Shown in pieces: positions 27,885 through 62,710 of a stretch of DNA of 64,000 nucleotides; within the stretch, counting starts at the first letter, position 1, and each line of letters begins with the position of its first letter. The position numbers and the translations under genes were made by a program. The DNA comes from Asterias amurensis (taxonomy: Eukaryota > Echinodermata > Asteroidea > Forcipulatida > Asteriidae): the NCBI RefSeq assembly GCF_032118995.1, contig NC_092655.1:12162406-12226405 (forward strand), in the 5' to 3' direction. The notes beneath the pieces were generated by a model that made no database searches, was not told the DNA's origin, and saw only the letters and a program-made list of their open reading frames with translations.

Positions 27885-30400
<2,516 letters not shown>

Positions 30401-35673: not shown

Positions 35674-35849
35674 AGTACAAGTGCCTACGGCATTTCTTTG
35701 TGGATACTTGATGAACCCTCAAACAAATCTGAAAAGTCGTGATTTGTTTACCATTTCTACTATCATTATCTTCAAATTGGTAAGTTTAGTGTAATTCCGT
35801 GGATATTGTGGTTTTTGCCCTACAAAAAGTACGTAGACCCTTTAACAAA

Positions 35850-35995
35850 CTAGTATTTTGAAGTTGAAAAACTAGTATTTGAAGTCGACAAACTAGTGTT
35901 TGGAGGTGGCAGACTACGGAAGTTGACAGTCTCGTATTGGAAGTCGCCAAACTAGAATTGGAAGTTTCAAACTAGTATTGAAAGTTAAAAAACTA
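35850..35995. repeat. Minisatellite (AACTAGTATTGGAAGTTGA), short array
   Basis: About seven imperfect units of roughly 20 bp in intron 4 of gene B. Intron 4 of gene C holds the same unit expanded to about 470 bp at 58795-59266. Confidence 0.8.
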
Positions 35996-36345
35996 AATCA
36001 AAACAACACTCAAACAAATTACACTTCTGACTCGTTGAAAAAAAAGGCTCTCCGATGAAAAATTGATGCGCAGCAAACTTCAAAACTACGACCAAATGAT
36101 AACTAAACACACAAAAGGTCAAATCTGTTCGTAATGTTTAAGCGTTTTTGTTCAAGTTGATCTTAAAAGTCAATACTTACTGCAACAGTCTCTACGATTG
36201 AAAAGGGTGACCTTTCCAATACAGTGTTCCTCCTCGAGTCGAACAGTCCAGAACGGACGCTTATCGTTCTCTGTTTTTAAAACAAGCAAAACACAATGAG
36301 AGCAGTTAGGTAGAAACAGCAACAATGTCTATACAAGTCGTTACT

Positions 36346-36732
36346 TTAAAGACAGTGGACACTATTGGTAATTGTCCAAGACTAGCCTTCACAGTTGGTG
36401 TATCTCAACATATGCATAAAATAACAAACCTGTGAAAGTTTGAGCTCAATCGGTCATCGAACTTACGAGATAATAATAAAAGAATAAAACACCCTTGTCA
36501 CACGAAGTTGTGTGCGTTTAGATGGTTGATTTCGAGACCTCAAGTTCTAAACCTGAGGTCTCGAAATCAATTTCGTGGAAAATTACTTCTTTCTCGAAAA
36601 CTATGGCACTTCAGAGGGAGCCGTTTCTCACAATGTTTTATACCATCAACCTCTCCCCATTACTCGTCCCCAAGAAAGGTTTTATGCCAATAAATATTTT
36701 AAGTAATTACCAATAGTGTCCACTACCTTTAA
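36346..36732. mobile_element. TTAA-type MITE, copy 10
   Basis: Reverse orientation, full length, TTTAAAGACAGTGGACACTA to GTGTCCACTACCTTTAA. It abuts copy 11. Confidence 0.85.
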
Positions 36733-37043
36733 AGGCATTGAACACTATTGGTAATTTTTAATTTTTTGTTTACATAAACATTACTTGGTAACGAGTAATG
36801 GAGAGCTGATGTTGAAAGTATAATACAGCCCCCTCTGAAGTAACGAATAGTTTTGGAGTAACAAGCAATTTCTCACTAAAGTATTAGAATTTGATTTCGA
36901 GACATCAGAATTAGAATCCGAGGTCTAGAAATCAAGCATCTAAAAGCACACAACTTGTGCAACAAGGATGTTATTTTATGCGTATTTCGAGATACACCTG
37001 TTGAGAAAATCTGACAATTGCCAATAGTGTCCAGTGTATCTAA
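36729..37043. mobile_element. TTAA-type MITE, copy 11, sharing its end with copy 10
   Basis: Forward orientation, TTTAAAGGCATTGAACACTA to GTCCAGTGTATCTAA. Copies 10 and 11 meet at a single TTTAAA, as if the second inserted into the TTAA made by the first. Confidence 0.8.
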
Positions 37044-37319
37044 GCCTGTGAAACCATACACAATAATTCAGCTTTTACCAGAACTGAAGCAAATGTAATT
37101 CTGAATGGAAATGTTGCTCTTTGACCCATCACCTCCAGGGGTGAGTCTACAACCCCCTGGATCCAACCCCTGCCCGCTCCATCGGTCTTTCATGTTTGTA
37201 TGGGTGTATGCATTTATATCATCAATGAGGTAGCATTTTGACTTATCATTGAAGGGTGGATCCCGAATTTAAGGGCACTGGGCCAGAGTTTTGTTTCCCT
37301 TAAATCGATGGGAGATGAA

Positions 37320-37350
37320 GACGATGACGATGACGATGACGATGTTGGTG
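37320..37350. repeat. Short (GATGAC)n tract
   Basis: GACGATGACGATGACGATGA, then GATGATGATGG. Simple repeat in intron 3 of gene B. Confidence 0.8.
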
Positions 37351-37427
37351 ATGATGATGGTAACTAACACAAACAAATCAATATCAGATTCACACAACAA
37401 GTGTCAATTTTTTATATATTACACCTA

Positions 37428-37736
37428 TTTTACCCATACACCTATGTGTCTTAGCACTGTATACTCAGTACTTTCCCGAGTCCTGTGAAAAAATATCCTT
37501 TATCCCCGATGCAAATTTAACATCTATTATATCGTTGCGGTACCCGCTGCCAAAACATAGGATTCGAACTGCCTCTAGCTACTGGGCAACCTCGGTAGTC
37601 TAGTTGGTAAGACACTGCACTAGAATTGCAAGGGTCGTGGGTTCGAATCCCACCCGAGTAATATGCCCGTGATACTTTTTTCACAGGACTCGGGAAAGTA
37701 CTGAGTATACAGTGCTAACACACATCGGTGTACGGG
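37428..37736 (+). mobile_element. tRNA-like SINE with an inverted partial copy
   Basis: The plus-strand unit has TAGTCTAGTTGGTAAGACAC (A-box-like) and GTGGGTTCGAATCCCACCCG (B box), followed by GGACTCGGGAAAGTACTGAG. The 37428-37497 part is the inverse of that tail (CTCAGTACTTTCCCGAGTCC), so the whole folds back. The end lies about 35 bp from gene B exon 3. Confidence 0.7.
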
Positions 37737-37889
37737 AAAAAAAAACCTGTTAATTGGCTCATACTCACTTGTGATGGCGAGGGCCATCCACTACGTTACC
37801 GTCCACAGCTTTTGAGGATGAATATATACTTTGTAGTCAGAGCTTTGTTCCGTGTGGAATCCGATGATGGACAATGCTGTCAAACAAAC

Positions 37890-38235
37890 AGTCAAATCAA
37901 TTCAAGTCAAATCAAATCAATTCAATTCTTTATTCAATTCTTTATTCATCATGTCCAACACGAAAGTCACTTTCTACATGAACCGTAGAAATTAAAACAC
38001 CAAAAATCTACTAAAATATCACACGGTACATATAAATAGTTTTTTTTTAAATACACCGGAATTAAAATATTCATCAAAACAGTTAATAAACCAAGGATGA
38101 ATTGCAAGGAAAGGAAGGGGGTGGAAAAGGACAGAAGGAAGGGTGGGGTGGGAAGACAATACATGGGAACAAGGGAGTGGCCATAGGTAACATGGATTGG
38201 TAAGTACGAAGCAGTACATCTAATTAGATTGTTGT
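37890..38235 (-). repeat. Probable LINE/SINE tail with (CAATT)n and A/G-rich body
   Basis: AATCAATTCAATTCTTTATT at its left end, as in many L2-like tails read on the minus strand, then GGAAAGGAAGGGGGTGGAAA. The 90-codon minus frame here has no recognised domain. Confidence 0.4.
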
Positions 38236-38330
38236 GCACGAAAACATTAAATACATGTCTATTTTTTGCTGAAACTGGCCAGGAAAACCTACAGTTAGAG
38301 TCTTTTCGTTACAAATCTCAAACATCACCT

Positions 38331-38716
38331 TTAAGACACTGGACACTCTGTATGTCAAAGACCACTCTTCTCACTTGGTGTATCCCACCATATGCATAAA
38401 ATAACAAACCTGTGGACATTCTTGAGCTCGATTGGTCGTCGGAGTTGCGAGATAACTACGAACGAAAAAACACCCTTGTAACACGAAGTTGTGTGCTTTC
38501 AGATGCTTGATTTCGAGACCTCATATTCTAAAATTTAGGTTTCGAAATCAAATCGTGGAAAATTGTTTCTTTCTCGAAACCTAAGTCACTTCAGAGGGGA
38601 GCCGTTTTTCACAATGTTTTAATACTACCAACCTTTCCCCATTACCCGTTACCAAGTGAGGTTTTATGATGATAATTATTTTGAGCAATTACCAATAGTG
38701 TCCCACTGCCTTTTAA
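38331..38716. mobile_element. TTAA-type MITE, copy 12
   Basis: Reverse orientation, TTAAGACACTGGACACTCTG to GTGTCCCACTGCCTTTTAA. Intron 2 of gene B. Confidence 0.85.
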
Positions 38717-38891
38717 GAGCAAAACTCATGACGTGATTTGGGTCATCAGCAATAAATAGTTTGCACATTTCAAGTTTGTACATTTCGTTCGGTCAAAAGA
38801 AGAAATGAAATGCAGTTTCGATGAGTATCTCAAAAATACATTAATATGTTGGATGTCAAAAACAAGTCACGAATATATTGTTGTTACAGCA

Positions 38892-39470
38892 GACGAAAAT
38901 TATTTTAGCGTGAAAACGTTTGTGACCTTGTTTTACTAAATTCTCAAAAACTATAGCACCTCAGCAAGTAACATTTTAAGGTATAAAGCTTTCTACTTTC
39001 ATTATTTTCAAACAGTGTCAACTTAAAAGGAACATGTTGCATTGGATCGGTCGAGTTGGTCTTTCAAAAGCGTATGTAACCGTTTGTTATAAGATGCATT
39101 TGGTTAGAAAGATGTATAAAAAGTAGAATACAATGATCCACACACATTTGCCTCGAAATTGCGTGGTTTGCCTTTTACTTTCTGCGAACTAACACGGTCG
39201 GCCATTTATGGGAGTCAAAAATTTGACTCCCATAAATGGCCGACCGTGTTTGTCGACGAGGTAAGAAGAAAACCACGCAATTTCGAGTGATACTTGTGTG
39301 GATCATTATATTATATTCTACTTTTAAAACATCTTCTCTAACCATATGCATTTTATAACAAACGGTTACAAACGCTTTTAAAAGACTAACTCGACCAAAG
39401 GCAAAGTGTTCCTAAAATGTTACTCTGTGGAAGTGTGTTTTGTGCTACAAAAAGTACCCAAATCATTTGA
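38892..39470. mobile_element. GGATTTGGGTAC-family fragment split by an inserted element
   Basis: The left part 38892-39025 (CGAAAATTATTTTAGCGTG to AAACAGTGTCAACTT) and the right part 39413-39470 (GTGTTTTGTGCTACAAAAAG, TACCCAAATCATTTG) are consecutive pieces of one element. They are separated by the inverted-repeat element 39026-39412. Confidence 0.65.
39026..39412. mobile_element. Long inverted-repeat element with a perfect central hairpin
   Basis: The ends TCGGTCGAGTTGGTCTTTCA and AAGACTAACTCGACC are inverse, as are CCGTTTGTTATAAGATGCAT and ATGCATTTTATAACAAACGG. The centre 39192-39251 is a perfect palindrome (AACACGGTCGGCCATTTATG and its inverse). Confidence 0.85.
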
Positions 39471-39786
39471 AGTAGGTCTGTACAAACTCCGTGGCCAAAG
39501 AATATGACACTAGAGAGGTAAGTTTTAGGGGAAAGCAACCACGTCGGTTTTAAAATAGAGTTGAATCCAACCAAGTTATCATGTCATTTGAATGTTGTCG
39601 GGCTATCACGGCTTGACGTAGTGATAAAACGTTGCATATACGACCCCAGCCTTTGTCAATTATTATTATGTTTTATATAAAGTTAAATTTTTGTCAAAAT
39701 AATACTAGTTGTCACTAATTGTTGAGCGATTACTAAGCTGTACCCTGTACCCTTACCCACTCTGGCAAGATTTCAGTTCGGGAATG

Positions 39787-40155
39787 TGACTAGGTCACAA
39801 AGTGATCAGTCCTCCTCACTTGGTGTATCCCAACATAAGCATATAATAACAAGCCTGTAAAAATTTGAGCTAAATTGGTAATCGAAGTTGCGAGAAAAAG
39901 ATGAGAGAAAACATATCCTTGTTGGACGAATTTGTGTGCTTTTCAGATAGGAATAAAAGACTTCTAGCTAGTAAGAAGCCTTTTATTATTTAAGTGAGAA
40001 ATTACCCTCTTTCTCGGAAATCTATGCTACTTCAGAGGGGGAGCCGTTCCTCACAATGTTTTATACTATCAACAGCTCTCAAATGCTCGTTACCAAGTCA
40101 GTTTTTAAGTTAATGTGTGTTTTGAGTAATTACCAAACGTGTACCCTCCTTTTAA
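39787..40155. mobile_element. TTAA-type MITE, copy 13 (old, diverged)
   Basis: Internal boxes are recognisable (CCTCACTTGGTGTATCCCAA, CAGAGGGGGAGCCGTT, TTTTGAGTAATTACCAA). The terminal repeats are eroded. Confidence 0.65.
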
Positions 40156-40175
40156 ATGCCCGAGTTTGTACGTAC

Positions 40176-40238
40176 GTTTGAGCTATATAGAATGTCATCC
40201 ACCCCTCCTAAGCCGTCCCAATCAGCACCACCTTGAGC
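40176..40238 (-). CDS. Gene B exon 2, acidic spacer
   Basis: AQGGADWDGLGGVDDILYSS after a CAG acceptor, with a GTACGTAC donor. It is 63 nt against 64 in C, because TATAGCTC replaces TATGAACTC. Using the second GT of the donor run would give 67 nt and the correct phase. Confidence 0.7.
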
Positions 40239-40602
40239 CTGTTCAGATAAAATAGAAAAAAACATGAACAATCGAGTCATTTTGGGTCTACCATGAGCTA
40301 TTAATTTTAGAAGAGAAGACTCACTCATGTTCTCTTTCATCTAGAAGTTAAAACTATCAGTTTTAACAAACGTGAGAACGTTTATCGAAATCGGTGCACA
40401 AATGTTCAGCCAAGGCGGCCATTGAAGGAAAACACATCACACAAGTGTTCTATAAGCCTTTTTGAGGTATGGCAGACGTGATAGGAGTGTACATTTATTT
40501 TTTGTTTGGGTGTATACACACAAATTTATCAAAACCTTATAATAGTGTTGTAGCAATGTGTCAGCCATATCTCAAAAAGGCTTATACATAGGCGTTGGTT
40601 TC

Positions 40603-40890
40603 AGTGTCATTAAGGGACAGTGTCATAAGGGACAGTGTCAATAAGAGACAGTGTCATAAGGGACAGTGTCATAAGGGGCAGTGTCATAAGGGACAGTGTC
40701 ATAAGGGGACAGTGTCATAAGGGACAGTGTCATAAGGGACAGTGTCATAAGGGACAGTGTCATAAGGGACAGTGTCATAAGGGACAGTGTCATAAGGGAC
40801 AGTGTCATAAGGGACAGTGTCATAAGGGACAGTGTCATAAGGGACAGTGTCATAAGGGACATTGTCATAAGGGACAGTGTCATAAGGGAA
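40603..40890. repeat. 15-bp minisatellite (CATAAGGGACAGTGT)
   Basis: About 18 head-to-tail units, most of them identical, with a few 1-base variants (GGGGACAG, ATTGTCATAAG). It lies in intron 1 of gene B. The open frames translating it as GQCHK or YDTVP repeats reflect only the period of three. Confidence 0.92.
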
Positions 40891-41376
40891 TGTATTCCCT
40901 GAGTAGATATACACCATTTAAACCGAGACAAAATAGGACAGTAGAGTTAAACGGGTCGGAAAGGTCCACAGTTGGAGAACGTGTACAAAACCAAAGGGGC
41001 CCGTTTCAAAAACAGTTTGAGTATAAACAAAGAGGGACTATATCTGGTCCACAGTTACAGACGTATACAAGCTTGCATGTGTGTGTTTCCCGATGGGGAA
41101 AGTAACATAAACTATGGAAAGTCACGAGGACGGTATGAGATAAATTTTGTACGCGATTTGATGAATGGGAGACAGAATCACCTCTGTGACAACAGTACTC
41201 AGAGTCTCATTTTGATGTTCAAACCAATGTGCAAGTTACTAGGATCTAACAATGAAGGACGTTAGGAAAAGGCCTAAAGCAGATTTTGTGCGCGTCTTTT
41301 TGCTTTATTGATGAGGCGACAAAGCCAAAGCAAAGGTAAGGTTTGACAAGGTCCATAAGAAGAAAGAGCAGAGGTT

Positions 41377-41770
41377 TGAAAAAAAGGGAGCACGAACCGA
41401 GTTTCGAAATGACCAAAAGGGAGAATCGCGAGCCGAGGATTGGAAAAGGCACAGGGGGAGCCTCATTTTAAAAGGCATAAAGGGAGCACCAGGCGATGTT
41501 TAGAAAAAGCCAAAAGTAAGCACGAGCCGAGGTTTGGAAAAAGCACAAGGGAGCACGAGCCGAGGTTTGGATTAGGCCCACAGGGAGCACAGGCTGAGGT
41601 TCGTAAAAGGCCGAAAGAGAGTACCACGAGCGTAGATTGGCAAGGGCACAGGAGGAGCCTGAGCCGAGGTTTGAAAAAGACCAAAAGGGAGCCTAGGTTG
41701 GAAAAGGGCCGTATAGGAGCAAGAGCCGAAGTTTGCAAAAGACCAAACACTCGAGCCGAGGCTCGGTAAA
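41377..41770. repeat. Degenerate minisatellite, unit about 36-38 bp (GGGAGCACGAGCCGAGGTTT)
   Basis: About ten imperfect units with GAGCCGAGGTTTG and AAAAGGCACAAAGGGAGC cores. In intron 1 of gene B. Open frames on both strands follow the repeat and have no domain signature. Confidence 0.8.
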
Positions 41771-42056
41771 TGCCCCAAAATAATAGTTCCATTCAAATGA
41801 GCTAAGAAACATATTATAAACAAATACAGATAATAACCCAATCTTCATTCTTAGAGGCAAGGCAGATTGTTGTTAGAAGAGTGCACCATATTGGTGGAAA
41901 TGTTAATGTGTACGGAAACATCTCAAGGGGGCAACGATGCAATGTCAATGGGATAAAAAAAAAACAATTGTCCCCGCCCCCCCCCAGCTTGCCCCTACCC
42001 CTATCACGCCATGGACAGGTGAGAGTAGAGATACAGAAATAAATGATTGTCCTTAC

Positions 42057-42113
42057 CACTGCTCCCTTGGTTGTCAAGACGCTGAACAGTAACACAAGGA
42101 TGAAGACCTCCAT
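42057..42113 (-). CDS. Gene B exon 1, signal peptide
   Basis: MEVFILVLLFSVLTTKGAV, 57 nt, phase 0, donor GTG|GTAAGG. One of the clearest paralogous exons, with the ACAATGG start context conserved. Confidence 0.85.
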
Positions 42114-49611: not shown

Positions 49612-50443
49612 TTAGGGACCCATGTCATCTGGGACATCCTCTAGAATCTTGACTTCACCACCAATAACCTTCTTTTGCTCCTGGTCTTCGACAGGTTCTT
49701 CTGGTTCGGGTGCCTTTATGACTACCGGTTCAGGTTCTCGACACGCGTCTTCTCCGATGAACTCCTTTACTGTCACCTCACACAGCTGTAGAAACGAACG
49801 CTTATCAGAGGGGATGTCGACGCTAATGTAACGCGCCACCAACGGTGGGTCACATACCAACTCAATTGTGCCTCCGGGTGGAGTTGCCATGGCAGGACTG
49901 ACTACATCTCCGCACTGGGGATTGCTTTGAATGTTGCGACTGGTACCCGCGCGAACAACAGCATTCGTCAAACGCTCACCTAGTGATAGAGATGAACAAA
50001 ATAACAGAGAATTTGTTTTCATTAATGAAACAAAAGTAACCCATTATTTCAATAAAGCAGTTGTGTTGAGTACTTACTACAACAATCCCCACGATTGAGA
50101 AGGACAACTTTACTGATGCAGTGTTCATCTTCAAGGTCTACTATCCACCATGGATCAATCTCTATCTCTGTTTAGTACACAAAATAACAACAAAACATTA
50201 AAACCAGAGTTAACAAATTACATCAGTACATGCTATTCTAACCTCATCTAGGTATTTTGCACAAATTAACATGACATGTTGTATCCACAAAGAAGTTACG
50301 ATTTGTCGACTTACTTGTGTGTGTACAGATAAATCCTGGTGACAGCTTAGTGTCCAGGTTTCCGTCTGCAGCTTTATCTGGCGAGTACCTGTTGTCATAG
50401 TAAGAACTTTGCTCCGTCGGCTTACCGATTATAGACAAATCGC
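49612..50443 (-). CDS. Gene C FTP domain 3 and short tail (exons 9-11)
   Basis: Exons 50315-50443, 50078-50167 and 49612-49979. RDLSIIGKPTEQSSYYDNRY, then CTHTK with the motif His, KIEIDPWWIVDLEDEHCISK, NRGDCCSERLTNAVVRAG and LQLCEVTVKEFIGEDAC. The tail has a single APEPEEPVEDQEQKKV unit. Introns here are the shortest of the array (about 100-150 bp). Confidence 0.9.
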
Positions 50444-53400
50444 CTGTTCAGAAACCAAAAAATATATTTAGTGTATTGTGACTTTGTTGTCAGAATTGCT
50501 TGGCATTCAAACTCCACTAAGTTTAGCAGCTTACCAAGTAGATGTGATAACGGTCCCACTGCAGCGATAACGAGAACGATAACGATCACGACGCAAAGAG
50601 AACGCGTTTTATTGGTTGAATTGCTCCACGCAGATTACGCACACGCCCATTCAACCAATAAAATGCGTTCTCTTGGCGTCGTTATCGTTAATGTTCTCGT
50701 TATCGCTGCAGTGGGACTGGGCCTTAAAGCTACTTTGAAATTGGGCATTTTGACATTTACATAGGTTTGTGCAGTGTCCACAATCGATGTACAATTACTG
50801 GGTAGAAACCTACTTGAATGTGCTATTTCCAATACCGATATAGCAACGTTGACAAACCTACTTGAATGTGCTATGTCCAATATCGATATAGCAACGTTGA
50901 CAAACCGATCTGAATGTGCTATGTCCAATATCGATATAGCAACGTTGACAAACCTACTTGAATGTGCTATGTCCAATATCGATATAGCAACGTTGATTTT
51001 CGCTGTACAAATCTCAGTGAATCACTGAGATTTGTACAGCGAACTATGAATGTTGCTATTTCGGTGTTTGTCACTTGACATTTAAGTAGGTTTGTTGGAC
51101 GTGTCAAACATCAAACTAACTTTGCTGCCATGGTGTGAAGGTTGATTATTGTTATTTGTGTTTACCCTCCACGATGTTTTGTTTTTGTTTGTTTTATGCA
51201 AGTCGCCTGACACACAAGGCCTGAAGGCAATTTCAAGGTGTGAGCTACAATTGTTTTTTCCAGAGGCCATTGCCACCTACTCCTAGGGCTGAAACAGGGT
51301 TACCCCTTTTACAGTCCATACGAATGTAGGCTTGGGTATCATCAATTCGAAGCCGGGCCGGTAGAACAGAAAGCACTACCTCCCCAAGTTTATGTAGCGA
51401 GTGTCACGACACGACATAGATCCGTACCCACACCCTGCTGATGATCATCATGTATATTATTGTGACCCTCTCAAAAAATTAAATCATCGGATAAGGATAG
51501 AGGCTACGGCAGTTTGTTTCTTTACACTCGGTGCACAGTGACCATTTTATTCCTGTAACAGACGAATAAATATGTGTTGCAAGGTTTTCGCTGGAAATCA
51601 GTATGAGGGTTGTGGAAGCGCGCGAAATTGAAATGCATCTCAAGAGAGGGCGCTCCTCATGAATAATTAAATGTTACATAATAAAAAAAAATGCAATAAA
51701 AATAATAGTTGGGGTACAATTCATATGACCGTCACATTATTATACAGATATTTACTGGTAATGAGGTAACTACTGTACGTCTATTCCCACGAGGGACTTG
51801 AGTGACCAGAAGTGCGACCGATTTCCCGAGGCCGAAGGCCGATAAAAATAGGCCCCCTCTTCTGGTCACTCACAGGCCCGAGGGGAATAGATGTACACTG
51901 GTTACCGAATTATGCCAGTCAATGTGTGTTTTATAACACAGCTCGGTCTGAAATGGAATTAAGAACCGAAATCCTGAAAAAGAAAGGAAGTGTTGTAGTT
52001 GCTGTTCACGGTTCAAGTCAAGAGAAGGCGCTGTAACCGGGCACTATTTCCAAAGACTAGTGCCCGCTTGGGAACTAGTTCCCGCAAAACACGTGCGCGC
52101 CATCACTAGACTATATGAGTTCATCCCACGTGACCGTGTTTCAGCCAACCAGAATACAGAATAAGCAAGTGGTGTGTTATAAAACTGATTATACTAACGT
52201 TCGTCACTTTCACACTGGTTGACGTCAAGTTCGTAGATCTCTACTTCACGTAGTTGCAAATATTCGTTTCTGCCTGGTATGTTAACACTGACGTAACGCG
52301 CACTCAACGGTGGTCCACAGTAGACGGCCAGAACTCCGCCTCTAATCTTGGCTTGTTCAGCGGTGATTGCTGATCCGCATCGGGAATTTGTGTGTATGTC
52401 TTTACTTGTTCCTGCTCTCACAACAGCATTCGATAAACGTGCGCCTAATGAAATAAATGTAAAAATACAATATCAAAATCTTGTTTCGGTCACACGCACA
52501 CATTCAATGTTTTGCATCCCTGTTGAAACAGTATTCAGAATTCCCCTATGAGTCCCTGTTTGTGTTCCTTCCTTGTTTGGATCTCGGTCTCCAGAATGTA
52601 GTGATTATAAAATAATTTAGTTTGTGTTGCAGTCGCTGTGAGGACATTGCCTTGGTCTCTGTATACATGCTCTTAAAGATACTGGAAATATAATTTTTTT
52701 TTTTTCAAACATAAGAGTATATGCTTACGAACAATAAAACAATTCTTTAAGTAATTGTTTGTCACGATTTATATGTTTAAAAAATATATAAAGTTGTTTG
52801 GGGGGCTGACTCCGCCTACCCCTTTTGTGACGTCAATCGAGGCAGACTTTGCCTGCAATGCGTATAGTAAACACACGTGCAAAGTAAATGTACGTCTAAG
52901 TCGTGAGTTGGTACATTTCAAAAAGTGTTTTTCTGCATTCAGCAGCAATGCACCTGGTCGGCATTGCCGGAAAAAAAACAATTTTTTGTTGTTGAAACGT
53001 ACAAACTCACGACTTGGTCCGTACATGTACTTTGCAATTGTGTTTACAATACGCATTACAGGCAAAGTCTGCCTCGATGGACGTCACAGCCAGCGCCCTC
53101 TCGGGTCGGGGTCTATTCTTAAATTTGTAAATAACATAAGAACTGATTTTTTAAAACCTTAGTTAACTGTTTATTCACATTCCACTCATTAAAACACATA
53201 TATTAGTGACAAAAGCTTTATTTTGAAAAAAACCCACTTCCAGGTGACTTTATTACTGGACATTATTGGTAATTGTCAAAGAGGTTGCGAGATAATAATA
53301 GAGGAATTTGATTTCGAGACCTCAGATTTAGAACTTGAGGTCTCGAAATCAAGCATCTGAACGCACAGAACTTCGTTTGACAAGGGTGTTTTTCTCTTTC

Positions 53401-56400
53401 ATTATTATCTCGCAACTTCGACGACCAATTGAGCTCAAATTTCCACAGGTTTGTTATTTTATGCATATTTTGAGATACAGCAAGTGTGCAGGCTGGTCTT
53501 TGACAATTACCAATAATGTCCAGTGTCTTGGGGGATAGCATGCTCTATTGGTCTCATTGCTAACCTGGACATCTGACGTCACACGTCAAGGCTGGTGAAT
53601 TAGGCAGGAGATCTGCCTTTAGCTTACTGTCAAAGTCCATAATCACCTTTCACCTAAATTCATTTAACATACACACTGCATGCGGCTTGCCGAAATAAAT
53701 TGAATAGCAATTTACAAGAATGCATGATTGTGAATTAGGCTTCTATCTGTCATAACTGACATGGAAACCCTATACTTACTGCAGCAATCATAACGGTTGA
53801 ACAAAACCACTTTACTGATGCAGTGCGTGTCTATAAGATCTACTCTCCACCATGGATCAAAGTCATGACCTGCAAAGGAAATATTGATATTTTGAACGGA
53901 AAACTGAGGGAATATTTTCCACTAAAACCCTACTCTATAAAAGTTTGAAAGACACACACTACCCGTCTTAATCTTTTGTGACGTCACTTAGTTATCCGAG
54001 GTCTGTCTCCACTACCCTGATTCAGGGAGGTTCAATTCAATTCAATTCAATGAACATTCATTTTCATGTAGACAATAACAATTTAAGCATATACACTAGA
54101 AAACAAATATCGATGAATATAATAATGAAGGACTGATTTGAAGATAATCTAAGGCAACGTGTTCCTTTAAGAGATAAACAAATTTTTCACAAACTCTTTT
54201 TCGCTAGGTTTGAGCTTGGAGCAAGTTGAGCATCAAAGGAGAAACAAATCTGTCCTTTCCACTTTTATTTTACTAAGAAAAACAGTATAATTTTAACATT
54301 TTGAAAACAACCTTAAGAAAAGTTTCTATATATTACGACAAAAGAGTGAACATTTATGGCTAACTTGTTTCAGACACTGGACACCGTTGGTAAATGTTGT
54401 GCTTGGTGCAACTAAACATCTAAACAACATAATGAACCTGTGAAAAATTTTCGAAGTTGCGAGAAACTTTTGAAGAAAAAGTATCCTTGTCACCCAAAGT
54501 TGTATGCTTTCAGATGTTAACTTCGGGAGCTCAAAGTCTAATATTCTGAGGTTTTGAAATCAAATTCGAATATTCTGGCGGAAAATTACTTTTTTCTTGA
54601 AAACTACGTTACTTCAGAAGGTGCCGTTTCTCACAATGTGTTATACTATCAACCTCTCCTCATGACTTGTTAATGTTACCAAGAAAGTTGTAATGCTAAC
54701 AATTATTTTGAGTAATTACCAATAGTGTCCAGTGTCTTTAAAAAATGAACCTGTTATTGTCTCCAAGTGAAAGTGGGTATATAATGAGGCACCCTAATAT
54801 AGACGATGTGACCTCTGACGTAACACGAAAACCATAACATGATTCGCGCGCATACCGCCGGGCAAAACCTTTGTGTTTTGGCAGCCAGCTAGAAAGTGTA
54901 CGCAATCTTACTGTGACTGCGCAACTCAGTGCCCGGCGAAACATGACCTATAGAGTGTTTTGTCAACAGAGGGCGGTTTGAATGTAAACATAGGTCAGAT
55001 CGTCTAGAGGTTGTTTACCGTCCAGCAGAATGACTTACCGGTGTGACTGAAACCTGAGTCTACAAACTTGCCAATAAAACCATCGGCGGCCCTCTCCGAT
55101 GGGAACCTCGTATCATCGTATCCGGAGCTTTGTTCGGTCGGGGAACTCAGAATGGAGATTCTCCCTGGGTTAGAGGTAAATATGAGAACGAGGTAAATTT
55201 GTGTTAGAAGTAAACTTGGGTTTGGGTGTAACTTCGGGTTCCGAAGTTAATTTGAGAAATAGGTCGATTTGGGTAAAGAGGTAATAGTTTGGGGTTCGAG
55301 GTTAATATTTGTGTTTTGGGGTAAATCATGTTGAGGAGGTAAATTTGGGTTTGGAGGTAAATTTGGGTTTAAAGCCATTGGACACTTTCGGTAAAAAGTA
55401 CTGCCCAAGGCCTACACTTCGTGTATCACAATTTATGTATAAATAAAATTACAAACCTGTGAAAATTCAGACTCAATCAATCATCGGAGTCTGGAGAAAA
55501 TAACGGGAAAACCCACCCTTGTTTCCATACGTTTCGCCGTGTCATGACATGTGTTTAAAATATATCCGTAAATCTCGACATCGAGAATTGAGAATTGAGT
55601 TTTCTCAAAAAGTAAAGCATTTCATAGAACAATATTTCTAGAGAAGTCTTTCACATTTACCTTCTGTAATCCCTGTAAGTTATTTGTAAATCTGTGAATT
55701 TTGTTTTCAATGTCTTTAATAGGTTCACTTGGGTTTAGAGCGAAGAGCTATATAATAAGATCTTAATTAGCTTGATGGTTTCGAGGTAAATTTGGGATGG
55801 AGGTAAATTTGGGGTGGAGATAAACTTGAGGTTTAGAGATTAATTGGGTTCAGATGTAAATTTTGGTTTTGGGGTAAACTTGGGTTTTGAGGTAAAATCG
55901 GGTTTAAGAAATAATTGAGTGTAGAGGTTAATTATTTCGGTTTAGAGGTAAATTTGGTTTGAGAGGTAAATACACAGCTTATTGTTTTGCTTTTTCTTCA
56001 TTAAAGCCATTGGACCCTTTCGGTAAACACTATTGTCCAAGGCCCACACTTCGTGTATCACAACTTCTATATCAAATAACAAACCTGTGAAAATTTAGGC
56101 TAAATCGATTATCGGAGTCTGGAGAAAATAACGGGGAAAACCCATCCGTGTATCCGCGCGTTTCGCCGTGTCGTGACATGTGTTTAAAAATCCGTAATTC
56201 TCGCTAACGAGAATTGATATTGTTTTACTGTTTCCTCAAAAAGCAAAGCATTTCATGGAATAATATTTCATGGGAAGTCTTTAACCACTACCTTCTGTAA
56301 ACCCTGTAAGTTATTTGTAAATCTGTGACCTTCTTTTTTTTCTGTACCGAAAGGGTCCAATGGCTTCAAAACATATTCTAGTTATATCCCAATTTACTGT

Positions 56401-59400
56401 TTTACGATGCTTGTACACCCACACTTCATTATTTAATTAATCTGAATACTGTTAGAGCGTGCGTTATCTGTTTTTCCTTTTGTTCTCATAAATTCACATT
56501 GATTGAAAAATTATGGATGTTTTCGTTTGACGTAATTCTGATTATTCAACTCTCTGTGATCAATGGGTGACGTTGATTCCTGTCATGAATGTTATTTTTA
56601 GTAGCGTTACATCTAACTACAAAAGGATGAAGGTTAATGCATAAAGGCTCTTTTGTATTCGTGAACTTTAGATTATGGATTATATACAATGAAAGACAAA
56701 CTCTTTGGAACCAAATGGGCTTGAACGTTAAACCAAAGAGTGTTTTGTTGGCGACAGCTGTGAGATGCCTTTGTGTGCAAACTAATTAGCTCTTTGGTTA
56801 AAGGCAGTGAATACTATTGTTAGTTGTCAAAGAATAGCCTTCACAGTTGGTGTATCTCAACATATGCATAAAATAACTAACCTGTGAGAATTTGAGCTCA
56901 ATCGGTCATCAAAGTTGCGAGATAGTAATGAAAGAAGAAAACACCCTAGTCATACTAAGTTGTGTGCGTTTATTAGATGGTTGATTTTGAGACCTCAAGT
57001 TCTAAATCTGAGGTCTCGAAATCAAATTCGTTGAAAATGGCTTCTTTCTCGAAAACTATGGCACTTCAGAGGGAGCCGTTTCTCACAATGTTTTATACCA
57101 TCAACCTCTCCCCATTACTCGTCACCAAGAAAGGTTTTTTGCTTATGATTATTTTGAGTAACTACCAATAGTGTCCACTCTCTTTAATAGAAAATGAGTC
57201 ACGATAGTTGATGCGTAGGCCTACTTTAATTATCGGGATTAACTTTTTTTATACATGTAGTGTAGCATAATCGCTAACTTAATTACATTTTAGTAATAAT
57301 GGTGTAAGCGATAGACACATGACAAGATCAAAGGATTTGAACCTGCAATTTCTAGGCTGATCAGTTCCTTAAAAAAATACACATCTGCAGCGTTACGCAA
57401 AATGTCGTGTCATAAGAATCTTTTTTTTTTTTTCACAACCAGATTTCTTCGAAGTAAAATGTTTCTCAAAATGCTGTATACTATCAAACGCTGAAAAGAT
57501 TAGTAGTGTCATTAGTTTAAAAGAGTGATTATCAAACGTTTACTTTTTTACTACTAAAGTATTTTACGATTTAGTGGGGAAATAATTTCTGATAATACTC
57601 CCTGACGTACTTTCTATTTGGTGGCATCGTTGAATAGGATATTCCTCAACCTTAACTTCATGAAGATGTAGGTAATCCCTGTTTGGTAGAACAACGTTGA
57701 CCTCACTCGCCAACAACGGCGGGTCACAGTAAACATCAATGACGTCCCCATTGTTCAAGTGGGATTCCAGTGGTGACCCGCATCGTTGATTCAGATTGTA
57801 GAATGGACTGACCCCAGCTCGGACAACGGCGTTCGCTAAACGTGCACCTGTTGCACAAAAAACAAGTGTTCAACTTTCAGTCGTTTTGATTAATTTGTGT
57901 TCAATATGTCATTGCCTAAATGGAAAGGGGTATTTAGGCACAAGAGATGAAGCACCTCTGGGGTGGATTTCACAAAGGTAGTCCTAACTTAGGACTAGTC
58001 CTAGGCAATGCTAAGAGATAGGACTAGTCCTAAGTTAGGACTACCTTTGTGAAATCCACCCCTGGGGTAATTTCTGGATACTGGATGAATCTCCACACAA
58101 ATTATTAATGGTCGTGATTTTTTTAACTTCCACATGGTCACTCATCACTTTTCAGCGAGATAGTCTTTCGTTGCCATTATTGAATACAACATTTTCACGA
58201 GTTTGGAAAAGTTTGTACACCCTTGTTAATCACATGGTGGGATTGGCTGGCGAAATTGCGCGCATGCGTGAACGATGCCTTAGGCCGTATGAAAATGGTG
58301 GCGCATGTGCAGGAGCTTAAAGGGTTTGGATACTTGTTTTAACACAAAACACCATGTCCACAAATTTACGTTAAACTCATACCGTTTGAAGATTATTATA
58401 GTAGAAAGCGTACCTTAAAATATTGGTTGCTGAGATATGAGTAATACAATGTCATGAAAATACGTTTTTACATGCTAAAAAAATTTTGTCTCATGATCAC
58501 TGAGACGAAAATTATTTTCATGATATTGTTTTACTCATTTCTAAAAAACAATAGTATTTCAGCAAGTAATATTTTCAGGGTAGCTTTCTTCTATCATTAT
58601 CTTCAAACTGTTTAAGTTTAGTGTAAATCTGTAGACATTGTGTTTTTTTCAACAAAAATTACATAACCCTTTAATGAAGCTGAAACAGAGATATCGTAAA
58701 CTGTTTGAGATAGAATCATACAAACAATACATGGTTATTTCGGGTGACCAGTTGATGTTAGCTCCCCTTCGTATTTTGGAAGGTTGCAAACTTGTATCAG
58801 AAGTTTAGAAACTAGTAATAGAAGGTTAGAAACTAGTATAGGCCTATTGGAAGTTTACCCTACTGGCAAGTGAGAAACTAGTATTGGAAGTTGAAAAACT
58901 AGTACTGGAAGTTGACAAACTAGTGTTGGAAGTTATTAAACTAGTGTTGGAAATTGAGAAACTAATATTTCAAGTTGACGAACTAGTATTGGAAGTGACA
59001 GACTTGTATTGGAAGTTGACCCTACTGGAAAGTGAGTAATTAGTATTGGAAGTTGAGAAACTAGTATTGGAAGTGGACAAACTAGTGTTGGAAGTTGGCG
59101 GTCTAGTATTTGAAGCTAATAAACTAGTGTTGGAATTTGAGAAACTAGTATTTCAAGTTCACGAACTAGTATTGGAAGTGACAGACATGTATTGGAAGTT
59201 GACCCTACTGGAAGGTGAGAAACTAGTATATTGGAAGTTGAGGAACTAGTATTGGAAGTTGACAAATAAATCAAAACAACACTGCAACAAATTATATTGC
59301 GGACTCCATTCGTTGGGAAACGGGGCTATATAGTTTTACCGATGACATTTCAGCAAAATTTGTTGCGTAGAAAACTTCAAACTTACGCCAAATGATATCT

Positions 59401-62400
59401 TAACACATAAAGGGTCCAAATTGTTTTAGCGACTTCGTTCGTCGAGTTGATCTTTAAATACTTACCGCAACAGTCTTTACGATTGAAAAGGGTGACCTTT
59501 CCAATACAGTGTTCCTCCTTGAGTTGAACTGTCCAGAACGAATGCTCATCATTCTCTATTTTAGAAACAGGCAAAACACACTTGGGAATTTAAAGAAATT
59601 AAGAAAAATAATCGTTAAGATCACAGATTACAGCTTGCACGTTCTCATGATGATGATAGCAGACAGTGGCGTAACTAGACATTTTCATTTGGTGGGGCAA
59701 GTGGGGGCAAAGATTAAATTTGGGGGGGGGGCCAAAGAAGTGCAAGATTATTATTAAATATGTTAACTGATATATAGTTGATACACACCAATGCAGTTCT
59801 AAAACAGTCTATAGTCAGCATGTAACAAAAGATTGCGAAAACAACAAAATCTTAGAGAACATGTCATTTTGTATAAGATAAAACTTTTTGACTGTATAAA
59901 AGGATTAAATTACCAACTGTGGTCAACAAGTACCAATTTAGAGTTGTACACGGTATTCTCAACTAGGCTTTGTGGGTGTGTAAATACCCAAAACATAATA
60001 ATATTAGGCCAAGTAAAAATAGAAAAATAGAAATGTTTAGCGTCCCCGCCCGCTTCCTTTTTACAGGACACCTCTTTTTTTTTCTGAGCGGGTTCTGAGC
60101 GGGGGTGGCGCCGCCCCCCTGCCCCCCCCCCTGCCCCTCCTGCCCCCCCCCCCCCTCTGGTTACGCCACTGATAGCAGAAAACATCCCTTAAAAAATGTT
60201 TGTCTGAAAAGTCATTTGATGAGAAATGAATAATCTATTTCCGTGTTTGGAGTTTATCGCTCAGTGAGCATTCGAGATTTACCATTATAACTGTGTGTTT
60301 AAAAAGCCTTCCAAGGCGTTTTCATGCAGTATAATTTCTGAAGATTCTGAAGATAAAAGATAGATACAACAAGATCTCTAGAACTATAACGATAAGTTAA
60401 ATTTAAAAAACTACACACGAAGTCGTCAGACGATTGGGCAAGTAATTGGCAATAGAAGAAAATATTAAACAGACGCATTATCAATATCACTCAAAAACTG
60501 TATAATTGTTTTGCTCATTTCTCAGGGGCTGCAGCGCCTCAGTGAGTGGTATTTCGGGGGAGGTTTTCTACTGTCATTGTCTTCGGGCCCAGTAGGTTTG
60601 GTTTGGAAATGTGGACATTTTGAAAAAGTACCCAAATCCTTCATGGGCCTTAGTTTTATTGTTTTATGTTATAATAGTTATTGTGTATATCGTTTGTGTA
60701 AATTGCTTTTTATTTACCAGTGTTTAATGTACAGTATATAAATGTTTACCTTTTTATGAGCTAGGTCTGGAAGGGCACATTTATTTTTGATGTCAGGTGT
60801 TTTTTTTTTTTTTTGTATTGTTCTTACTTTTGCCCTTCCCTTGACGTACTTGTTTTATTGTTTTGTCCGAAGAATTAAAGCAAAATAAAATAAATAAAAT
60901 ATGTATACATGATACTCACTTGTATGGAAGAAGCCATGATTTACGTCTCCGTCTACACCTTTTGAGGATGGATATAGGTTGCTATCATAGTCAGAACTTT
61001 GTTCCGTATGGAATCCGATGATGGACAATGCTGTCAAACAAAAATAAATTCATTTCAAGGGATTGCATAACATTTGGTATTTGGGACCATACGCTTGTTT
61101 CAATCGTATGCAGATAACATACCATCAAACTATAGTATCTGAATGTTTTATTTAAAGGGAACAAAATCTACAGAATGTTGAACAAAATCCAAAGAATGTT
61201 CGTGTTTCTGTAGGCTTTCTCAACATTTATGTTTTGTGATTTGTTTACACCTTTTGGGCCTGCATGACCAAAACATGTGAGTTCTAGAAATGGTTCCTTT
61301 CTTTATTCCCGGCTTCGACTTTTGTGATTTGTTTACACACTTTCCATTCATTTGTTTGTGGTGGTGATATAATTGCTGAAGCTTGTGTAGATTTTGTGAG
61401 GGATGTACATTTACGCATGAACAAAAAGTTAATAAATATGAACAACAATAAGGGAATAACATGTGATGATCAGGGCCAAATTTCGTTGTATGTACATGTA
61501 CATTATTAAAGGATTAAAACAATCGAACGGTTCAACTTTGAAAGACTTTGTCAGTCTTGATAACAACACTTGCAGTTTTAAAGACAAAGTGTACGTTTTC
61601 CTGACCCCCCCACACCCCCCAAAAAATAAATGTGTTTGGTTTGAAACATCTTTGGATCATAGAAAGTGTATGTTGTTATAGATTTCATGCCAATAAGCCT
61701 GACGCTTTTCTCATATTCAAACCTGTGGGGGTAACAAAAATATCCCTTTCTCTAAAACTAGTTAAAAGGGTCGTTCCTCATACTGTTTTTAATATCAATT
61801 TAGACCACGAGGGAAACTGACTGGGTAAATTTTGAAATGATTTTTTGGGTTGAACAAAGAATTGACTAGAGTGGGATTCAAACCAACGACCTCCGGATTA
61901 ACGTGCCGGCGCTATCTAGCCCTATGTTGGCGGAGTCCCTGTTTTGTCAATATCTTTGTTCGGGGTAACAGTCAGAAGCCTTACAACCGTTAACTGCCGT
62001 GTAGCCAGGGATCACACCCAAATTACGATACAACCTGGGAAGCGGCAGCCAGGACTTTTTTTTCAGATATCGATATAAACCACAAGGGGCTCAACAACTC
62101 TCAAGTGGTCTTTATACCAAAAGTATGTTTTGTATTGTCACTAATTTGTTGACGATTGCAAAAGGAACTGTAATACCTGAAGCAAGGTTCAGGCATGGGA
62201 ATGGAACCTGGGTCTCAACATGATGTGAAAAGTAGTCAGTGAACCACTTCGCTTACTATAAAGGCAAAGTTTCTACGTACGTTTGAGTTCATACAGACTG
62301 CGATCAGCCTCTCCAAAACCGTCCCAGTCCAAATCATCTTGAGCCTGTAACGATAAAAAAAAAATGAACAAATGGTTTTAGACATTTTGGGGCTACCGTG

Positions 62401-62710
62401 AGCTAGCGATTTAAAAAGAAAAGACTCATTCCTGTCATGCACAGCTATGCAAATTTACATGGGAAAGGGCACATAAGGAGCCTTAGCCGAGATTGGGAAC
62501 AGTTGGGAATATATACCCCTGCACCCCCCGGGTGACACCCATGTAAATGTGTCAAAGGGGCAAAATGGCAATTGCCCCGTTCCTACGCTCTGAGTGAAGT
62601 ATCACGCCATGGACAGGTCAGAGTAGAGATACATAAATAAATGTTTGTCTTACCACTGCTCCCTTGGTTGTCAAGAGGCTGAACAGTAACACAAGGGTGA
62701 AGACCTCCAT
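49612..62710 (-). CDS. Gene C: secreted triple-FTP (fucolectin-type) lectin, all three fucose motifs intact
   Basis: Predicted extracellular lectin of 535 aa. Exons: 62654-62710, 62281-62344, 60920-61030, 59466-59555, 57611-57847, 55039-55164, 53780-53869, 52199-52444, 50315-50443, 50078-50167 and 49612-49979. They sum to 1608 nt and are open throughout, with intron 1 phase 0 and introns 2-10 all phase 1. Residues 1-19 are the signal peptide, 20-40 an acidic spacer, 41-186 FTP1, 187-340 FTP2, 341-493 FTP3 and 494-535 a short tail. H-x26-R-x-D-x4-R is complete in each domain (His76, His227, His382), with the adjacent cysteine pair that in eel fucolectin forms a disulfide under the sugar. Three sites in one chain would allow multivalent binding or agglutination, an inference from the family. 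The tail ends KILEDVPDDMGP. Confidence 0.9.
50552..50717. mobile_element. Hairpin MITE with GTCCCACTGCAGCGATAACG arms
   Basis: The left arm continues AGAACGATAACGATCACGAC and AACGCGTTTTATTGGTTGAA; the right arm is the inverse with few mismatches, ending GATAACGAGAAC-inverse and CTGCAGTGGGAC. Intron 8 of gene C. Confidence 0.85.
50806..50997. repeat. Four tandem 48-bp units followed by a palindrome
   Basis: AACCTACTTGAATGTGCTAT followed by GTCCAATATCGATATAGCAA repeats four times. A hairpin (TTCGCTGTACAAATCTCAGTG and its inverse) lies at 51000-51045. One diverged unit is present beside the (TAC)n array of gene B at 27735-27800. Confidence 0.88.
51197..51315. repeat. Dispersed repeat (GTCGCCTGACACACAAGGCC), copy 2
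   Basis: Nearly identical to 31685-31800. In gene B the copy is in intron 7 and here it is in intron 8, so it is not simply inherited with the duplication. Confidence 0.7.
51777..51895. repeat. Hairpin repeat, CTATTCCC / GGGAATAG ends
   Basis: GAGTGACCAGAAG is inverse to CTTCTGGTCACTC, around CCCGAGGCCGAAGGCC. It resembles the centre of the 47653 palindrome. Confidence 0.7.
52199..55164 (-). CDS. Gene C FTP domain 2 (exons 6-8)
   Basis: Exons 55039-55164, 53780-53869 and 52199-52444. RRISILSSPTEQSSGYDDTR, then FSHTGHDFDPWW with the motif His, VDLIDTHCISKVVLFNRYDC, SARLSNAVVRAGTS and NVNQC-type closing YELDVNQCESDE. His, Arg, Asp and the final Arg of the fucose motif are all present. Confidence 0.9.
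52827..53087. mobile_element. Inverted-repeat element with GTGACGTC ends
   Basis: GTGACGTCAATCGAGGCAGA and GACTTTGCCTGCAATGCGTA on the left are inverse to the right side (CGCATTACAGGCAAAGTCTG, CCTCGATGGACGTCAC). Inner arms GTCGTGAGTT/AACTCACGAC. About 260 bp. Confidence 0.85.
53252..53530. mobile_element. TTAA-type MITE, copy 17 (internally deleted)
   Basis: TTACTGGACATTATTGGTAA, then a jump from GTCAAAGAGGTTGCGAGA straight to GATTTCGAGACCTC. The right half is normal. Intron 7 of gene C. Confidence 0.8.
54368..54741. mobile_element. TTAA-type MITE, copy 18 (diverged)
   Basis: TTTCAGACACTGGACACCGT to GTGTCCAGTGTCTTTAA, with a 10-bp internal duplication (AATCAAATTCGAATATTCTG region). Intron 6 of gene C. 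Confidence 0.8.
54798..55006. mobile_element. MITE with ATAGAC-ATGTGACCT ends, copy 2 (inverted)
   Basis: Reverse complement of 47956-48167 with small indels. It ends about 30 bp from exon 6 of gene C, on the donor side. Confidence 0.8.
55369..55719. mobile_element. TTAA-ended element (AAGCCATTGGACACTTTCGG), copy 1
   Basis: TTTAAAGCCATTGGACACTT on the left; the right terminal repeat is degraded (TTCAATGTCTTTAA). Sits inside the GGTAAATTTGGG minisatellite of intron 5, gene C. Confidence 0.75.
55790..55980. repeat. Degenerate minisatellite (GGTAAATTTGGGTTTAGA), with 55165-55370
   Basis: About 17-20 bp units (AGGTAAATTTGGGRTGGAG). Same intron and same unit type as gene B 34412-34630. Confidence 0.75.
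56001..56369. mobile_element. TTAA-ended element (AAGCCATTGGACACTTTCGG), copy 2
   Basis: TTAAAGCCATTGGACCCTTT is exactly inverse to AAAGGGTCCAATGGCTT at the right end. About 80-85 percent like copy 1 by eye, 280 bp away. Confidence 0.82.
56798..57186. mobile_element. TTAA-type MITE, copy 19
   Basis: Reverse orientation, TTAAAGGCAGTGAATACTAT to GTGTCCACTCTCTTTA. Close to copies 10 and 15 in internal sequence. Intron 5 of gene C. Confidence 0.85.
57611..61030 (-). CDS. Gene C FTP domain 1 (exons 3-5)
   Basis: Exons 60920-61030, 59466-59555 and 57611-57847. PLSIIGFHTEQSSDYDSNLY, GDVNHGFFHT (motif His second to last), NDEHSFWTVQLKEEHCIGK, NRKDCCGARLANAVVRAGVS and HEVKVEEYPIQRCHQIE. Exon 5 is 6 nt shorter than in A and B, and still in frame. 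Confidence 0.9.
57960..58064. mobile_element. Hairpin MITE (GACTAGTCCTAA family), copy 3
   Basis: GGGGTGGATTTCACAAAGGT is exactly inverse to ACCTTTGTGAAATCCACCCC. The youngest-looking copy of its family here. Confidence 0.88.
58317..58674. mobile_element. TTAA-ended element (GGATTTGGGTAC family), copy 4
   Basis: TTAAAGGGTTTGGATACTTG to AAAATTACATAACCCTTTAA, with the CTGAGACGAAAATTATTTTC centre. Intron 4 of gene C, the same intron that holds copy 3 in gene B. Confidence 0.8.
58795..59266. repeat. Minisatellite (AACTAGTATTGGAAGTTGA), expanded
   Basis: About 22 units of 20-22 bp. There is a higher-order period of about 185 bp, because the block GACCCTACTGGAAAGTGAG recurs near 58855, 59019 and 59200. 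Frames across it read as KLVLEVD repeats by chance. Confidence 0.88.
59664..60171. mobile_element. Non-autonomous hAT-type element with 8-bp target duplication
   Basis: Ends CAGTGGCGTAACTAGA and TCTGGTTACGCCACTG are inverted repeats. Identical ATAGCAGA sequences at 59656-59663 and 60172-60179 are the target-site duplication. CAGxGG ends with 8-bp duplications are characteristic of hAT transposons. The 508-bp interior encodes no transposase and has long G and C runs near both ends. Intron 3 of gene C. Confidence 0.88.
60494..60643. mobile_element. GGATTTGGGTAC-family right-end fragment
   Basis: TTTTGCTCATTTCTCAGGGG, then GAAAAAGTACCCAAATCCTTCA. The left half is missing. Confidence 0.65.
61050..62270. 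other. Intron 2 of gene C, no further gene recognised
   Basis: 61867-61935 has a minus-strand GGGATTCAAACC box next to CTATCTAGCC, a tRNA-like SINE relic. Small frames (61-72 codons) lack features. Confidence 0.45.
62281..62344 (-). CDS. Gene C exon 2, acidic spacer
   Basis: AQDDLDWDGFGEADRSLYEL, 64 nt, acceptor CAG, donor AAAC|GTACGT. Ends in phase 1 and joins CA|TTG of exon 3. Confidence 0.78.
62654..62710 (-). CDS. Gene C exon 1, signal peptide
   Basis: MEVFTLVLLFSLLTTKGAV, 57 nt, phase 0, donor GTG|GTAAGA. Differs from B at two residues. Confidence 0.86.

What the first reader, a model, noticed from the sequence alone, without database searches (positions are those of the whole stretch)
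49612..62710. Graded loss of the fucose-binding histidine across the array
Seen: H-x26-R-x-D-x4-R is complete in all three domains of C and only in FTP3 of A (FTP1 Ile, FTP2 Phe). In B the site reads Val in FTP2 and Ile in FTP3, and the FTP1 exon ends AIT, so no domain has it. The R-x-D-CC-xx-R half is kept everywhere. Established: this motif contacts fucose in eel fucolectin. Inference: scaffold kept, sugar specificity changed or lost gene by gene.
Basis: partly seen in the sequence, partly recalled or inferred. Interest (0 to 1): 0.8.

Follow-up and report, generated by a model that had tools for sequence, protein, structure and literature searches.

The report
Starfish lectin genes with varying sugar-sites
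A starfish genome carries a row of five related lectin genes, each with three sugar-binding modules; most modules keep the histidine that touches fucose, one apparently intact gene has replaced it in two modules, and a second gene that lacks it looks broken, so this is a clear but not unusual case of a lectin family varying its binding site.

Summary
Genes A, B and C are three-domain F-type lectins whose fucose triad is spread over three phase-1 exons per domain. The His-site reads A: Ile/Phe/His; B: unreadable/Val/Ile; C: His/His/His, with R-x-D-C-C-x-x-R kept in 9 of 9. Three corrections. (1) B domain 1 did not simply become Ile: its first exon carries indels and an in-frame TAG, and B's linker exon is one base short, so B is probably a pseudogene. 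(2) The array has five genes; D (His 3 of 3, but R-x-D-CC altered in two domains, last exon not found) and E (His 3 of 3, open) lie outside the window. (3) Non-His sites are not special here: 4 of 14 readable array domains against 5 of 35 sampled elsewhere in this genome (p = 0.25), and oyster bindin isoforms are a published precedent (PMC5712786). Gene A is open and its branch constrained (omega 0.28), so decay is unlikely to explain its two His-less sites. Codon models suggest diversifying selection at some sites; the loop-versus-core contrast is mixed. Sugar specificity is untested. The genome fits the Asterias amurensis assembly.

The parts
49612..62710 (-). Gene C: three-domain F-type lectin with signal peptide, open, His in all three sites
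   Evidence: exon models; signal exon; stop codon at 49612
62654..62710 (-). Gene C signal-peptide exon, MEVFTLVLLFSLLTTKGAV, donor phase 0 by my reading
   Evidence: found as conserved block in all five genes
62281..62344 (-). Gene C linker exon AQDDLDWDGFGEADRSLYELK, phase 0 to 1
   Evidence: conserved in C, D, E; one base short in B; a shorter, weakly similar candidate in A
60920..61030 (-). C FTP1 exon 1, ends GFFHT; His codon CAT 60924-60926
59466..59555 (-). C FTP1 exon 2, RKDCC
57611..57847 (-). C FTP1 exon 3, starts with the second Arg
55039..55164 (-). C FTP2 exon 1, ends GFSHT; His codon CAC 55043-55045
53780..53869 (-). C FTP2 exon 2, RYDCC
52199..52444 (-). C FTP2 exon 3
50315..50443 (-). 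C FTP3 exon 1, ends ICTHT; His codon CAC 50319-50321
50078..50167 (-). C FTP3 exon 2, RGDCC
49612..49979 (-). C FTP3 exon 3 with acidic Pro/Glu tail and stop
26265..42113 (-). Gene B: same architecture, probable pseudogene (two 5' lesions)
40176..40238 (-). B linker exon, 63 nt against 64 in C, D, E (frame lost)
   Evidence: coordinates counted by hand from that alignment
37769..37876 (-). B FTP1 exon 1: indels, in-frame TAG; ends ATC ACA only when read in the donor's frame
34286..34411 (-). B FTP2 exon 1, ends GFSVT; His-site GTC (Val) 34290-34292
32177..32266 (-). B FTP2 exon 2, RWDCC
27397..27525 (-). B FTP3 exon 1, ends TCSIT; His-site ATT (Ile) 27401-27403; its 5' part is nearly identical to C, its 3' loop diverged
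26777..26866 (-). B FTP3 exon 2, RGDCC
8503..19872 (-). Gene A: open in all three domains, most diverged gene of the array, long repeated acidic tail
   Evidence: linker candidate at 18324-18369 tentative
17716..17832 (-). A FTP1 exon 1, ends IAIT; His-site ATA (Ile) 17720-17722
16377..16466 (-). A FTP1 exon 2, RADCC
14214..14336 (-). A FTP2 exon 1, ends FAFT; His-site TTC (Phe) 14218-14220
12938..13027 (-). A FTP2 exon 2, RIDCC
10349..10477 (-). A FTP3 exon 1, ends CTHT; His codon CAC 10353-10355
9650..9739 (-). A FTP3 exon 2, RGDCC

Best explanation
This is a local cluster of probably secreted, multivalent F-type lectins in a sea star. Each gene encodes a signal peptide, a short linker, three F-type domains and an acidic tail. 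The fucose triad of each domain is laid over three exons (His at the 3' end of exon 1, Arg-x-Asp-Cys-Cys at the 3' end of exon 2, second Arg at the start of exon 3), so the two halves can change independently. After duplication, point replacement in the binding loops and uneven homogenisation of exons between copies made the sites diverge. In gene A, which is open throughout, two of three sites became hydrophobic (Ile, Phe) while the gene stayed under purifying selection; the likely result is a lectin with one canonical fucose site and two sites that bind another ligand or none. Gene B carries the same kind of change but is probably a recent pseudogene. Shown: anatomy, residues, lesions, selection estimates. 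Inferred: secretion, multivalency, homogenisation, altered binding.
For: Motif table. Alignment of the C3 site to 1K12 and 3CQO. Pfam PF22633 above cut-off in 8 of 8 domains given, of 15 in the array. Omega 0.28 on the A branch, omega = 1 rejected. Site model M2a over M1a: 2dlnL 27.7 with all columns, 23.4 with gap columns masked, 26.0 without A, 16.6 with B, C, E only. C/E replacements in 18 of 147 loop codons against 9 of 305 others, p = 0.0002. B/C dS 0.48, 0.31, 0.09 for FTP1, 2, 3 points to homogenisation of FTP3; for the diverged end of B3 exon 1 the search found no closer copy than C3 at 87%. B lesions.
Against: No binding, expression or structure data. The loop partition is mine, from motif positions. 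Replacement-to-silent ratio in loops against core is not significant: C/E p = 0.22, B/E 0.07, B/C 0.12. FTP1 alone shows no support for M2a (2dlnL 0.9) and several top sites lie outside the loops. In the five-gene set the FTP2 His site has posterior 0.27 and the other two His sites are not among the 30 sites listed. Gene conversion can inflate site models. The A branch is unrooted and near silent saturation. CDR2 aromatics Phe45/Tyr46 of AAA are not conserved in His-bearing C3, so 'His kept' need not mean 'binds fucose'.
Confidence: 0.6

Rival explanations
1. Relaxed constraint: extra copies are drifting, and loss of the His is decay with no new function.
For: B is broken at two places; D has altered R-x-D-CC in D1 and D2 and no last exon was found. 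8-29% of positions invariant in the other copies have changed in A or B, so losing one residue is not rare.
Against: Gene A is open with omega 0.28; omega = 1 is rejected on the A (2dlnL 76), B (8.1) and D (5.8) branches, not on C or E. Arg, Asp, Cys, Cys and Arg are kept in every non-His domain of A and B.
Confidence: 0.27
2. Oyster-bindin-like diversification: the array encodes recognition lectins (gamete or immune) whose sites are driven apart by positive selection, His loss included.
For: M2a preferred over M1a in the four joint sets. C branch omega 2.2, although omega = 1 is not rejected (p = 0.16). In B, C and E alone the His sites of FTP2 and FTP3 have posterior 0.86 and 0.89 for the omega > 1 class. 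Published: five of ten modelled oyster isoforms lack the triad (PMC5712786 section 12).
Against: Expression site unknown. In the five-gene set the FTP2 His site has posterior only 0.27. B, where those changes sit, is probably a pseudogene. Loop-against-core replacement/silent contrast not significant. Gene conversion biases the test.
Confidence: 0.3
3. Assembly or gene-model error: the non-His residues or the B lesions come from mis-assembly or wrong splice choice.
For: No transcript was available; exon ends were chosen by hand from splice signals, and the first models of A1, B1, D1 and D2 had to be corrected.
Against: Same phase-1 structure, GT/AG splice signals and x26 spacing recur across the 15 domains. 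The genome's size and contig lengths fit an assembly made from HiFi reads (PMC10625585 passages).
Confidence: 0.05

Closest known systems
Eel fucolectin AAA (PDB 1K12) and striped-bass FBP32 (PDB 3CQO)
   Same: F-type domain, His / Arg-x-Asp-Cys-Cys-x-x-Arg site in register; C3 matches 3CQO at 1.5e-36 and 1K12 at 1.4e-20
   Different: Three domains plus acidic tail; triad split over three exons; His replaced in A1 and A2; CDR2 aromatics of AAA not conserved in C3
Oyster bindin (Crassostrea gigas F-lectin), from PMC5712786 section 12
   Same: Tandem F-type domains, an intron inside each domain, loop diversification, isoforms without the triad
   Different: Here separate paralogous genes; in A and B only the His is lost and both Arg stay, whereas the oyster isoform 7 named in the legend has Val, Gln and Lys at the three triad places
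Second F-type cluster of the same genome, C8:20.56-20.77 Mb
   Same: Same three-exon modules, many copies
   Different: 15 closely similar modules in a row all keep His; of seven plus-strand copies sampled five replace the Asp of R-x-D while keeping His

Membership tests
F-type lectin (FTL) family | F-type / F5_F8-like domain by sequence | tested here: met
   PF22633 above cut-off in 8 of 8 domains given; 1K12 and 3CQO hits for C3 and A1
F-type lectin (FTL) family | Fucose motif, printed as HX24RXDX4(R/K) in PMC5712786; x26 in 1K12 by the alignment | tested here: inconclusive
   Complete in A3, C1-C3, E1-E3 (7 of 15); His lost in A1, A2, B2, B3; B1 unreadable; D1 has Glu for Asp, D2 lost Asp and Cys-Cys, D3 lacks exon 3. 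Met domain by domain, not for the whole array
F-type lectin (FTL) family | Cation motif h2-D-G-x | tested here: inconclusive
   Of 8 readable window domains AA precedes DG in 6, AG in A2, GV in C1; x is N or D in FTP1 and FTP3 but F or Y in FTP2
F-type lectin (FTL) family | Binding of alpha-L-fucose | not testable with these tools
   needs protein
Oyster-type F-lectin bindin | Positive selection at the binding face | tested here: inconclusive
   M2a over M1a significant in joint sets and C/E replacements enriched in loops; not in FTP1 alone, several top sites outside loops, replacement/silent contrast not significant
Oyster-type F-lectin bindin | Sperm acrosomal expression | not testable with these tools
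   no expression data held

The most novel reading that the evidence does not exclude
The His-less but double-Arg sites (A1, A2) are tuned to 4-substituted fucose. In the active outer glycan (fragment 1) of the egg-jelly substance ARIS described for Asterias amurensis, each fucose of the repeat is 4-O-sulfated or 4-linked (PMC3528131 passages), so none offers the free axial 4-OH that His52 contacts; a pocket with His replaced by Ile or Phe and both Arg kept could take a sulfate instead. The inner chain (fragment 2) does hold a fucose printed without sulfate. Gene A would then read self-type sulfated fucans while C and E read ordinary terminal fucose.
Probability: 0.06. Interest if true: 0.75.

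Novelty: new member of a known kind. Interest (0 to 1): 0.4.

Why it matters
It gives natural paralogues in which the His of the fucose triad is exchanged while the Arg-x-Asp-Cys-Cys-x-x-Arg half is kept. That allows a direct test of what the His contributes and what a double-Arg site binds without it. It also suggests how splitting the triad over three phase-1 exons lets the two halves evolve apart: His lost in part of this array, Asp lost in part of a sister cluster.

Tried and rejected
Rejected: reading B1 as a His-to-Ile replacement (indels and a stop). Rejected: rescue of B by simple exon skipping, since the linker exon is one base short and, by my reading of the donor, the signal exon ends in phase 0 while domain exons start in phase 1. 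Not found: a donor elsewhere for the diverged loop of B3 (matches were B3 itself and the FTP3 exons of C, E and D). Uninformative: paper searches for His mutants of F-type lectins (15 of 1,012 listed), sea star fucolectins (5 of 5), echinoderm F-type lectins (15 of 644, 12 of 96) and motif variants (3 of 3); of these only listings with abstract starts were seen, apart from PMC5712786, and none of the listed titles is on this array. The first search for a signal exon gave nothing; it was then found by conservation. First splice models of A1, B1, D1 and D2 were wrong and were corrected. The loop table had a wrong label for FTP3 loop 4; one search replaces it (denominators changed, the replacement and silent counts did not; contrast recomputed). 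The free-ratio model gave an implausible omega of 20 on one short internal branch and was not used. Structure prediction was not run: spliced proteins are not read letter for letter from the DNA, which the tool requires.
Full report
Source. The window is G000:C8:12162406-12226405 of a 491.5-Mb, 23-contig genome. Contig lengths 38.01 Mb (C1) and 23.75 Mb (C9) fit the longest chromosome (38.00 Mb) and N50 (23.75 Mb) of the published Asterias amurensis assembly of 491.53 Mb (PMC10625585, passages). The species is therefore very likely but inferred.

Anatomy. A profile search of 184 kb around the window found 15 F-type domains in five minus-strand genes: A, B, C in the window, D and E beyond its right edge. 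Each domain is three exons (exon 3 of D3 not found) and the modelled domain introns are phase 1. Ahead of them lie a signal-peptide exon (ATG at window 19872 in A, 42113 in B, 62710 in C) and a short linker exon, clear in C, D and E, one base short in B, and only a weak candidate in A. The last exon of A, B, C and E carries an acidic Pro/Glu tail, longest and tandemly repeated in A. The coordinates of the finding are those of gene C alone.

The site. The residue aligned with His52 of eel fucolectin is the second last full codon of exon 1. It reads A: I, F, H; B: unreadable, V, I; C: H, H, H; D: H, H, H; E: H, H, H, with 26 residues to the Arg in 15 of 15 (B1 in its donor's frame). R-x-D-C-C-x-x-R is complete in 12 of 15 domains: D1 reads RKELCCTR, D2 has lost Asp and Cys-Cys, and D3 has no exon 3 that the profile could find in the DNA searched. 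The register is set by phmmer alignment of C3 to 1K12 and 3CQO. For A1 phmmer puts Ile on the His of 1K12, but puts the His of 3CQO opposite a gap next to that Ile. Eight domains were given to Pfam, the window's nine less B1; all eight match PF22633 above cut-off. The exon E-values come from profiles seeded with window exons and are not independent.

Gene B. By eye, its FTP1 exon 1 has a 4-base net deletion and a later 1-base insertion against C1, and it reads into an in-frame TAG; 'AIT' exists only in the frame of the donor. Its linker exon is 63 nt against 64 in C, D and E. Since the signal exon appears to end in phase 0 and domain exons begin in phase 1, skipping the bad exon does not restore the frame. 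B is therefore probably a pseudogene in this assembly; FTP2 and FTP3 are still open, and omega for B (0.45) is below 1 (2dlnL 8.1, p = 0.004), so the loss would be recent.

Selection. Counting by Nei-Gojobori, C and E differ by dS 0.00, 0.083, 0.020 and dN 0.018, 0.055, 0.028 in FTP1, 2, 3; B and C by dS 0.48, 0.31, 0.086. The uneven dS points to homogenisation of FTP3 among B, C and E. Within B3 the 5' part of exon 1 is nearly identical to C3 while the loop that holds the site differs, and a genome search found no closer copy of that loop. Two-ratio branch models: A 0.28, B 0.45, D 0.53, E 0.97, C 2.2; omega = 1 is rejected for A, B and D, not for C (p = 0.16) or E. The A branch is unrooted, so it includes the stem of the other genes, and its silent changes are near saturation. 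Three topologies differ little (lnL -4476.4, -4475.2, -4480.8). M2a beats M1a by 27.7, 23.4 with gap columns masked, 26.0 without A, 16.6 for B, C, E only; by domain 0.9 (FTP1), 20.7 (FTP2), 10.4 (FTP3, gene D dropped). Top sites include two in the loop before the His of FTP2, but also sites outside the loops. C/E replacements fall in loops in 18 of 147 codons against 9 of 305 elsewhere, p = 0.0002; B/E 29 of 130 against 37 of 300, p = 0.013; B/C 31 of 130 against 40 of 300, p = 0.010. The stricter contrast of replacement to silent changes in loops against core is not significant (C/E 0.22, B/E 0.07, B/C 0.12).

Base rate. At least 93 exon-2 matches and 100 exon-3 matches lie in the genome. 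In a sample outside the array the His site was read in 35 domains: 30 His (15 of these are closely similar tandem modules), and K in L024, C in L027, L in L032, Y in L037, S in L044; three more (L023, L030, L045) were not readable (my reading of exon ends from those outputs). Twelve of the 35 were picked by similarity to a His-bearing exon, which favours His. With the 15 modules counted as one it is 5 non-His of 21. In the array it is 4 of 14 readable. Neither contrast is significant (p = 0.25 and 1.0). So non-His sites are not shown to be special to this array. In seven plus-strand copies of C8:20.60-20.75 Mb the reverse is common: the Asp of R-x-D is Y, F, F, K or V in five, with His kept in the exon 1 paired with each (for L039/L052 the pairing is by position).

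Reading. What remains is gene A: open, constrained, with two hydrophobic sites and one canonical site. Deviations from the triad are known for F-type lectins (PMC5712786: section 4 part 1 and section 12 read, further passages seen). His52 touches the axial 4-OH of fucose (same source), so A1 and A2 most likely bind fucose poorly or bind something else. That step is inference. The idea that they take 4-sulfated fucose as in the outer ARIS glycan of this species (PMC3528131, passages) is speculation that a glycan array can settle.

Noticed in passing
window 27885-30343: A pure TAC trinucleotide array of 2,459 bp (about 820 copies, 100% matches) in the gene B intron between FTP2 and FTP3; it underlies five open frames of 841-930 codons that are not genes.
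   Followed up: partly
L021-L022 (C8:20564000-20583999): Fifteen F-type modules in 19 kb; most units alternate 1264 and about 1370 bp, and within each alternating set identities (best aligned piece) are mostly 99.7-100%: a very recent tandem amplification, all 15 with His.
   Followed up: partly
L025, L039-L043, L052-L056 (C8:20.60-20.75 Mb, plus strand): Sister F-type copies that keep His but in five of seven sampled (L024 and L053 are the exceptions) replace the Asp of R-x-D-CC (Y, F, F, K, V), the other half of the motif.
   Followed up: partly
window 9860-9905 (+): Histone 3' UTR stem-loop match (Rfam RF00032, 37.4 bits) inside a gene A intron; no histone frame was evident in the 360 bases before it.
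   Followed up: partly
window 37589-37661 (+): tRNA match (52.5 bits) inside the FTP1 intron of gene B, opposite strand.
   Followed up: no
window 8571-8865: 54-bp tandem repeats that lengthen the acidic KEPEP-type tail of gene A against C and E.
   Followed up: no
C8:12244969-12254250 (window coordinate 82564-91845, outside the window): Gene D keeps His in three sites but has altered R-x-D-CC in FTP1 and FTP2 and no FTP3 last exon found, so it may also be broken.
   Followed up: partly
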